Origin: a bacterium
GTDB lineage: Bacteria; Sysuimicrobiota; Sysuimicrobiia; Sysuimicrobiales; Segetimicrobiaceae
Assembly: GCA_035307765.1 (NCBI GenBank)
Contig: DATGHU010000037.1
Span: forward strand, 1 to 35,559
Length of the DNA: 35,559 nt
Direction: 5' to 3'
In this document: positions 18,156-35,559 of the stretch, piece after piece
Numbering within the stretch: the first letter of the stretch is position 1
Layout: each line of letters opens with the position of its first letter
The notes under the pieces: model-generated
Seen by the model: only the letters and a program-made list of their open reading frames with translations
Databases searched by the model: none
Told to the model about the DNA's origin: nothing
Made by a program: the position numbers and the translations under genes

Positions 18156-18168
18156 AAAACCGAACATT
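18156..18168 (+). promoter_or_regulatory. PurBox-like element 1
   Basis: The 13 bases match the Bacillus PurR PurBox consensus AWWWCCGAACWWT at every position. The element lies 10 bases upstream of the purD -35, between the divergent fabF and purD genes. The consensus is recalled knowledge; binding is inferred. Confidence 0.65.
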
Positions 18169-18178
18169 CTTGTCCCTC

Positions 18179-18207
18179 TTGGCAATTTCTTTCGCCTATG
18201 ATATAGT
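18179..18207 (+). promoter_or_regulatory. promoter of the purine operon
   Basis: -35 TTGGCA (18179-18184), 17-base spacer, -10 TATAGT (18202-18207): five of six matches in each box and ideal spacing for the main sigma factor. Transcription should start near 18214, leaving a leader of about 79 bases before purD. Confidence 0.8.
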
Positions 18208-18249
18208 GATTTCGCACTTCATCGTTCTTTTCAACGCAGCAGAAGTCGA

Positions 18250-18262
18250 AAAACCGAACGAT
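18250..18262 (+). promoter_or_regulatory. PurBox-like element 2
   Basis: Shares the 10-mer AAAACCGAAC with element 1 in the same orientation and matches the PurBox consensus in 12 of 13 positions. It lies about 36 bases downstream of the expected transcription start, in the purD leader. The two elements are 94 bp apart start to start, close to nine helical turns. Confidence 0.6.
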
Positions 18263-18292: not shown

Positions 18293-19606
18293 ATGAGAGT
18301 CCTTGTGGTCGGCGCGGGCGGGCGCGAGCACGCCCTGGTGTGGAAACTCCGCCAGGAGCACGGCGTATCCGTATTCTGCGCGCCGGGCAATCCGGGAATC
18401 GCCGAGATCGCAACCTGCCTGCCGCATCCTCCGCACGATCTCGACGCGCTCGCCGCGAGCGCCGAACATCACGCGATCGACCTGACCGTGGTGGGACCCG
18501 AGGCGCCGCTTGCGAGCGGACTGGTCGACGTGTTCGCCCGCCGCGGCCTCCCGGTCTTCGGCCCCACCCAGGCCGCCGCCCTTCTCGAATCGAGCAAGGT
18601 GTTCATGAAGATGCTCTGCCGCCGGCACGGCATCCCGACCGCCCCGTTTGCGATCTTCGAGGATCCCGGCGAGGCGATCGCCTCGCTGCGCCGCGCGGGA
18701 CGTCGGTGCGTGATCAAGGTGGACGGGTTGGCCGCCGGCAAAGGCGTGACCGTCGCCGCGACCGCGGAAGAGGCGGTGGCGGCCGTCGAAGCCGCGATGG
18801 TGGCGCGGCGCTTCGGCGAGGCCGGTGCGCGCGTCATCGTCGAGGAGGCGCTGGAAGGGGAAGAGGTGAGCGTGTTTGCGCTGTGCGACGGCGCGGCGCT
18901 CGCGACGCTGTTGCCCGTACAAGACCACAAGCGCCTCGCGGACGGAGACCGCGGTCCCAACACCGGCGGGATGGGGGCCTGCGCGCCGGTGCCGGCGGTG
19001 TCGCCGGCGACCCTCGATCGGATCACCGATGAGGTGCTGGAACCGATCGTGTGGGCGATGGCCCAGGACGGGCGCCCGTACCGCGGGGTGTTGTTTGCCG
19101 GGATCATGCTGACCGCGGACGGTCCCCGCGTGCTCGAGTTCAACGTCCGCTTTGGGGATCCGGAGACACAGGTGCTGCTGCCGCTGCTGGCGGGGGGACT
19201 GATCGACGCGTTCGACGCCGTGCTGGGCGGGCGCCTCGAGCGGTGGACCCCCCGCTGGCGTCCGGAGACCGCGGTATGCGTCGTCCTCGGCGCGGAGGGG
19301 TACCCCGAGCGGCCGGCGACGGGTCACCCGATCGCAGGCCTCCGGGAGGCGGCGGGCATCGACGGCGTGGAACTCTTCCATTCGGGGACGGCCGTCCGCG
19401 ACGGGACGCTGGTGTCGTCCGGCGGGCGGGTGCTCAACGTCGTCGGCGTGGGGGCGGGCGTCGACGAGGCGCGGGCCCGAGCCTACCGCGCCGTCGAGCG
19501 TGTGCGGTACGAGGGCAAGATCTTCCGCCGCGACATCGGAGCGCGCGCGGCGGCCCCGGTTCCCGGGAGGATGAGGAGCGGTGTGGGTTCGGGGGAGGCA
19601 CGATGA
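18293..19606 (+). CDS. purD: phosphoribosylamine-glycine ligase PurD
   Basis: 437 aa ATP-grasp enzyme for step 2 of purine synthesis (PRA + glycine + ATP to GAR). Starts MRVLVVGAGGREHALVWKL; VIKVDGLAAGKGV is the ATP-binding strand-loop, GPNTGGMGA and NVRFGDPETQ are catalytic/ATP-grasp motifs. ATG 18293 has GGAG six bases upstream; longer forms would start within or before the promoter. First gene of the purine operon. Length is normal. purE follows after 13 bases. Confidence 0.97.
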   Translation: MRVLVVGAGGREHALVWKLRQEHGVSVFCAPGNPGIAEIATCLPHPPHDLDALAASAEHHAIDLTVVGPEAPLASGLVDVFARRGLPVFGPTQAAALLESSKVFMKMLCRRHGIPTAPFAIFEDPGEAIASLRRAGRRCVIKVDGLAAGKGVTVAATAEEAVAAVEAAMVARRFGEAGARVIVEEALEGEEVSVFALCDGAALATLLPVQDHKRLADGDRGPNTGGMGACAPVPAVSPATLDRITDEVLEPIVWAMAQDGRPYRGVLFAGIMLTADGPRVLEFNVRFGDPETQVLLPLLAGGLIDAFDAVLGGRLERWTPRWRPETAVCVVLGAEGYPERPATGHPIAGLREAAGIDGVELFHSGTAVRDGTLVSSGGRVLNVVGVGAGVDEARARAYRAVERVRYEGKIFRRDIGARAAAPVPGRMRSGVGSGEAR

Positions 19607-19619
19607 GGAGGATGGATCG

Positions 19620-20171
19620 ATGACCGGTCGGAGCGGCGGCCCGCCGCTGGTGGGGATTCTGATGGGGAGCGACAGCGACCTCGCCACGATGGAGCAGGCG
19701 GCCCGGGTGCTGGAGGAGTTCGGGGTGGGGTACGAGATGACGATCGCGTCCGCCCACCGGTCGCCGGCCCGCGTGGAGCGGTACGCGGCCGAGGCGGAAT
19801 CGCGCGGGCTCCAGGTGCTCATCGCCGGCGCCGGCGCCGCCGCGCACCTTGCCGGCGTGCTGGCCGGGCGGACCGCGCTGCCGATCATCGGCGTGCCGCT
19901 CGCCGGGTCGTCGCTGGGAGGGCTCGATGCCTTGCTCTCGACGGTCCAGATGCCGGGCGGGGTTCCCGTGGCGACGGTCGGGATCGGGGGCGCGCGAAAC
20001 GCCGCACTGCTCGCCGTCCAGATTCTGGGCACGGCCGATCCGGGCCTGCGGGAGCGCTATCGGGCCTACAGGGCGCGGCTGGCGCGCGAGGTGGACGAGA
20101 AGGCGGCCCGGCTCGCCCCCCGGGGGGAGCCGGGGATGGTGCCGCCGACGGCGGGTGGGGAGGCGGGCTGA
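19620..20171 (+). CDS. purE: N5-carboxyaminoimidazole ribonucleotide mutase PurE
   Basis: 183 aa. Interconverts N5-CAIR and CAIR (step 6). MGSDSD (residues 15-20), SAHRSP (H46) and GAGAAAHLAG mark the family, and the VQMPGGVPVATV segment fits class I PurE, which normally needs PurK. No purK is in the operon. ATG 19620 follows GAGGAGGA by six to seven bases. The C-terminus extends about 20 residues beyond usual PurE in a G/P-rich tail. Its stop shares one base with the purA start. Confidence 0.95.
   Translation: MTGRSGGPPLVGILMGSDSDLATMEQAARVLEEFGVGYEMTIASAHRSPARVERYAAEAESRGLQVLIAGAGAAAHLAGVLAGRTALPIIGVPLAGSSLGGLDALLSTVQMPGGVPVATVGIGGARNAALLAVQILGTADPGLRERYRAYRARLAREVDEKAARLAPRGEPGMVPPTAGGEAG

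Positions 20172-35139: not shown

Positions 35140-35559
<420 letters not shown>

What the first reader, a model, noticed from the sequence alone, without database searches (positions are those of the whole stretch)
18156..18262. Two PurBox-like repeats bracket the purine operon promoter
AAAACCGAAC occurs twice in the same orientation, at 18156 and 18250, on either side of a TTGGCA-N17-TATAGT promoter. The first copy fits the Bacillus PurR consensus AWWWCCGAACWWT completely; the second has one mismatch. In Bacillus the two boxes are usually inverted and close together upstream; here they are direct and 94 bp apart, about nine helical turns, which would suit repression by looping. The upstream copy also sits in the divergent fabF control region, so purine and acyl synthesis could share a regulator.
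Basis: partly seen in the sequence, partly recalled or inferred. Interest (0 to 1): 0.72.

Follow-up and report, generated by a model that had tools for sequence, protein, structure and literature searches.

The report
Paired PurR operators flanking purine promoter
In a little-known bacterial lineage, the promoter of the purine-making genes sits between two same-facing copies of a likely purine-repressor site held about nine DNA turns apart, an arrangement that differs from the one known in Bacillus and suggests the repressor bridges or wraps the promoter.

Summary
Two 13-bp PurBoxes, same orientation, start 94 bp apart (18156, 18250) around a TTGGCA-N17-TATAGT promoter of a purD-E-A-B-C-Q-L-F-M-N-H cluster. 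The genome encodes a Bacillus-type PurR above its curated cut-off. Of 37 order genomes with a usable purD upstream region, 29 carry the direct pair: 26 at 93-96 bp and 3 at 84 bp, about nine and eight turns of 10.5 bp. Between families the DNA between the boxes is about as alike as shuffled DNA, and the promoter has slid by about one turn, yet within the 93-96 class spacing varies by only about 1 bp (sd). A pattern for the pair finds 21 places in 43 order genomes, 20 at purD, with 0 in the control; 32 PurR-bearing Bacillota show no excess. One genus of the order (and one further genome) has a Bacillus-like inverted pair instead. Best reading: PurR represses by joining the two boxes (loop or wrap) across the promoter, relieved by PRPP. 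Binding, sign of regulation and bridging are inferred, not shown. The shared-with-fabF idea is not supported. New variant of a known kind.

The parts
18156..18168 (+). Distal PurBox AAAACCGAACATT (13 of 13 consensus positions), 10 bp upstream of the -35
   Evidence: direct pair in 29 of 37 order genomes
18179..18184 (+). -35 element TTGGCA of the purD promoter
   Evidence: TTGGCA between the boxes in 10 of 12 genomes of family f1
18202..18207 (+). -10 element TATAGT, preceded by TG; start of transcription about 18214 is inferred
18250..18262 (+). Proximal PurBox AAAACCGAACGAT (12 of 13), in the expected 5' leader, same orientation, 94 bp downstream of the distal box
18187..18199 (-). Possible degenerate inverted half (ATAGGCGAAAGAA) at the Bacillus-like +31 offset from the distal box
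   Evidence: at least 4 of 6 core letters at +31/+32 in 9 of 12 f1 genomes and 3 of 17 others
18293..19606 (+). purD, first gene of the purine cluster
   Evidence: TIGR00877 over its cut-off; GARS_N/A/C
19581..20171 (+). purE (open frame)
   Evidence: TIGR01162
20171..21457 (+). purA
   Evidence: NF002223/TIGR00184
21295..22800 (+). purB (open frame; profile match starts at residue 55)
   Evidence: TIGR00928
22712..23713 (+). purC (open frame)
   Evidence: NF010568/TIGR00081
23913..24704 (+). purQ (open frame)
   Evidence: NF002957/TIGR01737
24314..26932 (+). purL (open frame; profile match starts at residue 149)
   Evidence: NF002290/TIGR01736
26401..28398 (+). purF (open frame; profile match starts at residue 205)
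   Evidence: TIGR01134
28408..29463 (+). purM
   Evidence: TIGR00878
28928..30118 (+). purN (open frame; profile match starts at residue 182)
   Evidence: TIGR00639
29881..31668 (+). purH (open frame; profile match starts at residue 79)
   Evidence: NF002049/TIGR00355
16828..18066 (-). Divergent fabF-like ketoacyl synthase; not considered part of the regulatory unit
   Evidence: PF00109 + PF02801; lineage-restricted

Best explanation
The two boxes are the operators of a Bacillus-type PurR encoded elsewhere in the same genome. A PurR dimer binds each box; the two complexes, held on the same face of the helix by a spacing of about nine (in one family eight) turns, join through a loop or through a wrapped PurR-DNA body and enclose the purD promoter, keeping RNA polymerase out when PRPP is low (or ppGpp high). 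Rising PRPP loosens PurR and opens the whole purine cluster. Shown: the sites, their conservation, orientation and spacing, the promoter-like sequence between them, and the presence of PurR with its effector loop. Inferred: binding, repression rather than activation, bridging, and the effectors.
For: PurR in the genome: 299.1 bits vs cut-off 258.7; winged-helix PF09182 + PRT domain PF00156; 43% identical to B. subtilis PurR over the part compared, PRPP loop DDF kept, B. subtilis Y102/F205/K207 aligned to F/F/R. Over cut-off in 39 of 43 order genomes. Direct pair in 29 of 37 genomes: 26 at 93-96 bp, 3 at 84. The strict pair pattern hits 21 places in 43 order genomes, 20 of them at purD, control 0. 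In 25 genomes of the 93-96 class box-box spacing has sd 0.97 bp while distal box to -10 has sd 4.9 (46-48 bp in f1, 37-38 in f2) and -10 to proximal box compensates (47-49, 56-58); over 28 genomes the proximal box lies 24-84 bp before the purD hit start. Inter-box DNA between families f1 and f2 is 0.49 identical vs 0.49 shuffled, so boxes and spacing are kept while the rest is not. Weak support from a second gene: G014 has a strict box and a 9-of-13 direct box 95 bp on, before an adenine/guanine permease. Published B. subtilis work (PMC8789054, passages read): each PurBox binds a dimer, six dimers can load, protection runs about 60 bp upstream and 20 bp downstream of the boxes, DNA is thought to wrap, binding causes positive supercoiling, PRPP induces and ppGpp counteracts it.
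Against: No binding, expression or footprint data. 8 of 37 genomes lack the strict direct pair: G031 has an 84-bp pair with a weaker distal box (9 of 13), five (G016, G023, G029, G035, G037) have an inverted pair, G014 one reversed box, G026 no clear pair. With the 84-bp class included the spacing sd is 3.3 bp. The eight-turn case is one family, so phasing rests on few independent events, and periods of 10.0, 10.5 and 11.0 fit about equally (vector length 0.845, 0.860, 0.866). The promoter score between the boxes is 9 or more in only 17 of 29 genomes. Loop formation over 94 bp of DNA is not proven by spacing. A degenerate inverted half-box exists at the Bacillus offset in 12 of 29 pair genomes. 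The G014 permease pair comes from a scan of nine sites that gave nine weak partners, most at unrelated distances.
Confidence: 0.65

Rival explanations
1. PurR acts as an activator from the distal box, as in Lactococcus lactis, and the proximal box only tunes or limits expression.
For: The distal box lies directly upstream of the -35 (10 bp in the window, 1-2 bp in family f2). PurR of L. lactis is an activator responding to PRPP (PMC3547956, passages read).
Against: The proximal box sits in the expected transcribed leader, a repressor-like place, and is kept at a fixed distance from the distal box rather than from the promoter. The distance from distal box to -10 differs by about 9 bp between f1 and f2. 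In L. lactis the box lies further upstream (recalled, from no call).
Confidence: 0.14
2. Two independent PurR sites: the distal one blocks polymerase binding, the proximal one is a roadblock; no interaction between them.
For: Each site alone could repress; single strict boxes precede gltB (three f1 genomes) and hpt (G038) promoters.
Against: Independent sites would not need a spacing kept within 93-96 bp while the promoter between them moves by about a turn, nor an 84-bp alternative without values between 84 and 93.
Confidence: 0.12
3. The distal box plus a degenerate inverted box in the -35/-10 spacer form the ordinary Bacillus operator, and the proximal box is an accessory third site.
For: At least 4 of 6 core letters lie inverted at +31/+32 in 9 of 12 f1 genomes and in 3 of 17 others, the three g11 genomes; mean core score at +31 is 2.9 against 1.56, sd 0.41, the top of 261 offsets. 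Genus g9 of family f6 has a clear inverted pair of outer length 35 bp, as in Bacillota, where 13 of 24 matches are 34-35 bp long.
Against: No such half-box in 14 of the 17 direct-pair genomes outside f1, nor in 3 of 12 within it, although they keep the direct pair.
Confidence: 0.08
4. Chance similarity; the boxes are not regulatory.
For: Counts within the window alone are not beyond shuffles.
Against: Conservation and zero control matches.
Confidence: 0.01

Closest known systems
B. subtilis pur operon control region (PurR / PurBox1-PurBox2)
   Same: Same regulator family, same kind of box with central CGAA, promoter of the purine operon, same expected effectors
   Different: There the 14-bp boxes are inverted, separated by 16-17 bp and just upstream of the -35 (PMC8789054, passages); here they are direct, 94 bp apart and flank the promoter
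Lactococcus lactis PurR regulon
   Same: Box AWWWCCGAACWWT upstream of purD, purC, purM, purH and others (PMC3547956, passages); PurBoxes can be single, and double ones are 'often' palindromic, so not always (PMC6377658, passages)
   Different: PurR activates there; no downstream partner at nine turns is described in the passages read
lac O3-O1 and gal OE-OI repression loops of E. coli (recalled, not tested here)
   Same: Two operators of one repressor flanking a promoter at about 90-115 bp
   Different: LacI/GalR family proteins with symmetric operators; unrelated regulator

Membership tests
PurR, Bacillus type (TIGR01743) | Score above the curated family cut-off | tested here: met
   299.1 vs 258.7 bits
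PurR, Bacillus type (TIGR01743) | N-terminal winged helix PuR_N plus phosphoribosyltransferase domain | tested here: met
   PF09182 82.4 bits, PF00156 49.8 bits
PurR, Bacillus type (TIGR01743) | PRPP/ppGpp pocket residues (B. subtilis D203, F205, Y102, K207) | tested here: met
   D and F identical; Y102 to F and K207 to R, both conservative; ligand binding itself not tested
Bacillus-type PurBox operator | Box sequence AWWWCCGAACWWT | tested here: met
   13/13 and 12/13; the order-wide form is, by eye, closer to AAANACGAACATT
Bacillus-type PurBox operator | Two boxes inverted with a 16-17 bp spacer | tested here: not met
   Boxes are direct, 94 bp apart; only a degenerate inverted half near the distal box. 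Met in genus g9 of the order
Bacillus-type PurBox operator | Bound by PurR | not testable with these tools
   No binding data
Repression-loop operator pair | Two sites flanking a promoter, on one face of the helix | tested here: met
   93-96 bp in 26 genomes, 84 bp in 3; mean phase -0.14 bp at 10.5 bp per turn, though 10.0 and 11.0 bp give similar vector lengths
Repression-loop operator pair | Sites bridged by one protein assembly | not testable with these tools
   Needs footprinting, tethered-particle or reporter spacing tests

The most novel reading that the evidence does not exclude
The direct boxes cap a PurR-DNA body of fixed size: PurR coats or winds about 107 bp of promoter DNA between two polar anchor boxes, in lengths quantised by the helix (nine turns, or eight in one family). 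This would be a further operator geometry for PurR and a natural ruler of how PurR wraps DNA, for which PMC8789054 (2021) says there is no structural information.
Probability: 0.3. Interest if true: 0.65.

Novelty: new variant of a known kind. Interest (0 to 1): 0.5.

Why it matters
How PurR represses is open: six dimers can load on a region with two boxes, the DNA is thought to wrap, and there was no structural information on PurR with DNA (PMC8789054, passages). An order in which the box pair is stretched to about nine or eight turns around the promoter, with one genus using the inverted Bacillus-like pair instead, gives natural constructs that separate orientation, spacing and helical phase. 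It also extends PurR control, by sequence, to a lineage that is probably the phylum Sysuimicrobiota (CSP1-3).

Tried and rejected
Chance: rejected by conservation. An RNA or translation element for the proximal box: its distance to the purD hit start ranges 24-84 bp while its distance to the distal box is nearly fixed, and at gathering scores Rfam finds only 16S rRNA in the window. Shared control with fabF. A wider habit of all PurR bacteria: the direct-pair pattern gives 6 places against 7 control places in 32 PurR-bearing Bacillota (frames around the six were read by eye, no pur gene recognised, no profile search) and, with a slightly stricter form, 11 against 29 in 248 genomes outside the order (for these 11 I saw positions and matched letters, not genes). 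Autoregulation: no box scoring 11 or more around purR in 12 order genomes; in the window's own genome one 11-of-13 site lies about 1.4 kb upstream of purR, inside an ispE-like frame, and one 10-of-13 site; not followed. A site pair at C13:68943 of the window's genome (104 bp, weak second box) shows no clear promoter and I treat it as probable chance.

Rows dropped: of 43 order genomes, six had no usable purD upstream region (G025 at a contig edge; G013, G017, G034, G039, G042 without a full purD start), leaving 37. The promoter table uses 29 pair genomes; the 25-genome spacing table leaves out three f4 genomes (84-bp class) and G032 (scan picked a promoter beyond the proximal box). The gene-start distances use 28 (G030 left out). 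Outside the order, PurR-bearing genomes were tested for 32 of the 77 non-order loci listed.

Literature: searches for PurBox alone (9 papers), PurR with direct repeat (2), PurR with DNA looping (21 papers with at least four of five terms, 10 listed), PurR with RegPrecise (8) and Sysuimicrobiota (5) showed no description of this arrangement in titles and starts of abstracts, nor in the passages I read; only held open-access papers were searched. The primary operator papers I tried (Saxild 2001, Sinha 2003, Bera 2003) are not held.

Full report
What is there. The window holds a purine cluster, purD-E-A-B-C-Q-L-F-M-N-H. Upstream of purD a strong sigma-70-like promoter (TTGGCA-17-TATAGT, 18179-18207) lies between two PurBoxes in the same orientation, 18156-18168 and 18250-18262, offset 94 bp. 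Within the window alone the box count is not significant (10 of 100 and 38 of 100 shuffles reach it); the case rests on comparison.

The regulator. The window's genome (G000, 3.82 Mb, 51 contigs, 96% complete) encodes one PurR above the curated TIGR01743 cut-off, with the PuR_N winged helix and a PRT domain, 43% identical to B. subtilis PurR over the stretch compared, with the DDF effector loop kept. An ispE-like frame (by eye) lies upstream of it. 39 of 43 genomes of the order have a PurR over the cut-off.

Conservation. Of 43 order genomes 37 had a usable purD upstream region. 29 carry two direct boxes (scores of at least 10 of 13): 93 bp in 6, 94 in 8, 95 in 9, 96 in 3, and 84 in 3; 14 genera and five families are represented. 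Of the other eight, G031 has an 84-bp pair with a 9-of-13 distal box; five (G016, G029, G035, G037 of genus g9, and G023) have an inverted pair offset by 32 bp; G014 has one reversed box; G026 has no clear pair. Permuted consensus sequences reached at most 17 genomes in 500 trials, mean 0.38, against 29. The strict pattern CGAACNWT-N65-95-AWWNNCGAACNWT over 43 whole genomes gave 21 places in 20 genomes, 20 of them at purD, and 0 for the reversed control.

Why the spacing is itself under constraint. In family f1 the -10 starts 46-48 bp after the distal box; in f2 37-38 bp. The distance on to the proximal box compensates (47-49 and 56-58). Over 25 genomes of the 93-96 class the sd is 4.9 bp for the first, 4.3 for the second and 0.97 for the sum; over 28 genomes the proximal box starts 24 to 84 bp before the purD hit start. 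DNA between the boxes is about as unlike between families as shuffled DNA (f1-f2 0.49 vs 0.49, f1-f5 0.50 vs 0.50, f1-f6 0.53 vs 0.50). The best promoter inside the pair scored 9 or more in 17 of 29 genomes, and in 0 of 87 equal windows further upstream. So promoter, leader and spacer have drifted; the box pair has not. 94.5 and 84.0 bp are nine and eight turns at 10.5 bp; the mean phase is -0.14 bp, but 10.0 and 11.0 bp periods give similar vector lengths, the 84-bp class is a single family, and with it the spacing sd over all 29 is 3.3 bp, so phasing is suggestive rather than proven.

Contrast with the known geometry. In B. subtilis the two boxes are inverted with 16-17 bp between them, just upstream of the -35 (PMC8789054, passages); elsewhere PurBoxes can be single and double ones are often palindromic (PMC6377658, passages). 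In 32 PurR-bearing Bacillota the inverted pattern gave 24 distinct places, 13 of them 34-35 bp long, which is that geometry (the total is no higher than the 29 control places; the signal is in the length). The direct pattern shows no excess there (6 vs 7 control), nor in 248 genomes outside the order (11 vs 29 control). Within the order the inverted 35-bp form occurs at purD in the four g9 genomes, with one further inverted match in G017 away from purine genes. The order thus seems to use the same regulator and box in two geometries. A degenerate inverted half at +31/+32 of the distal box is present in 9 of 12 f1 genomes and 3 of 17 others.

Other likely targets. Strict boxes (AAAWNCGAACAWT) number 23 places in 18 of 43 genomes, 0 in the control; 15 are at purD and 8 elsewhere. 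Of the 8, three precede gltB in f1 genomes including the window's own, 12-13 bp upstream of a TTGACA (profile match for G000 only, partial); the gltB leader that follows resembles a ykkC-class RNA (Guanidine-I 52-56 bits, under the gathering score of 63), and ykkC subtype 2a RNAs, found among others at glutamate synthases, are reported to sense ppGpp (PMC5912903, passages). One precedes hpt followed by a guaB3-like frame in G038. One in G014 precedes an adenine/guanine permease and has a 9-of-13 direct box at 95 bp; the same scan of nine sites gave nine weak partners, most at unrelated distances, so this is weak. The other three (G042, G024, G040) show no clear purine link. In the window's genome a looser pattern gives 6 places against 0 control: the purD pair, gltB, C13:68943 and two within genes.

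Mechanism. Most likely, PurR dimers at both boxes join across the promoter and repress; PRPP releases them. Repression is inferred from the B. subtilis homologue and from the box in the leader; the L. lactis homologue activates (PMC3547956, passages), so the sign must be tested. Bridging versus wrapping is open; the six-dimer loading, long protection and positive supercoiling reported for B. subtilis PurR favour wrapping.

Lineage. Three order contigs match, by length and by a PurR hit, records titled Armatimonadetes bacterium (JAIBHM010000011.1, VGFF01000039.1, MNEU01000005.1). Their placement in Sysuimicrobiota (CSP1-3) is recalled; the phylum paper (PMC11604079, passages) describes one class, one order and five families and separates it from Armatimonadota.

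fabF. A divergent fabF is found by motif in 8 of 12 f1 genomes and 0 of 25 others; the distal box is kept without it, so it serves purD. An effect on fabF in f1 is not excluded.

Noticed in passing
L024 (G000:C33:2488-2500, minus), L238, L239: A strict PurBox 12-13 bp upstream of a TTGACA promoter of glutamate synthase (gltB), followed in the leader by a ykkC-class RNA (Guanidine-I model 52-56 bits, below gathering 63), possibly a ppGpp riboswitch: PurR and an RNA that may sense related signals in one leader.
   Followed up: partly
L241 (G014:C5:71279-71291): Strict PurBox and a weaker (9 of 13) direct box 95 bp on, before an AZG1-like adenine/guanine permease: the same spacing at an unrelated gene, though weak partners were common in that scan.
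   Followed up: partly
L236 (G038:C286:8508-8520): Strict PurBox upstream of a TTGACA...TATAAT-like promoter of hpt, followed by a guaB3-like frame, downstream of pyrF/pyrE-like frames.
   Followed up: partly
L227 (G042:C86:12337): Strict box about 100 bp before a divergent frame that reads like a BMP-type substrate-binding protein; no profile search made.
   Followed up: no
L045, L048, L063, L042 (G018, G038, G030, G036): A further direct box 21 bp (two turns) upstream of the distal box in genera g11 and g20.
   Followed up: no
L231 (G024:C106:5498): Box-like AAATGCGAACAAT between tsaD-like and groEL-like frames; in G015 a groEL-like frame lies directly upstream of purD.
   Followed up: no
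L216 (G017:C569:3422-3456): An inverted PurBox pair of the Bacillus-like length (35 bp) between a parB-like frame and an HD-domain-like frame (read by eye).
   Followed up: no
window 35140-35559: 5' part of a 16S rRNA gene at the end of the contig.
   Followed up: no
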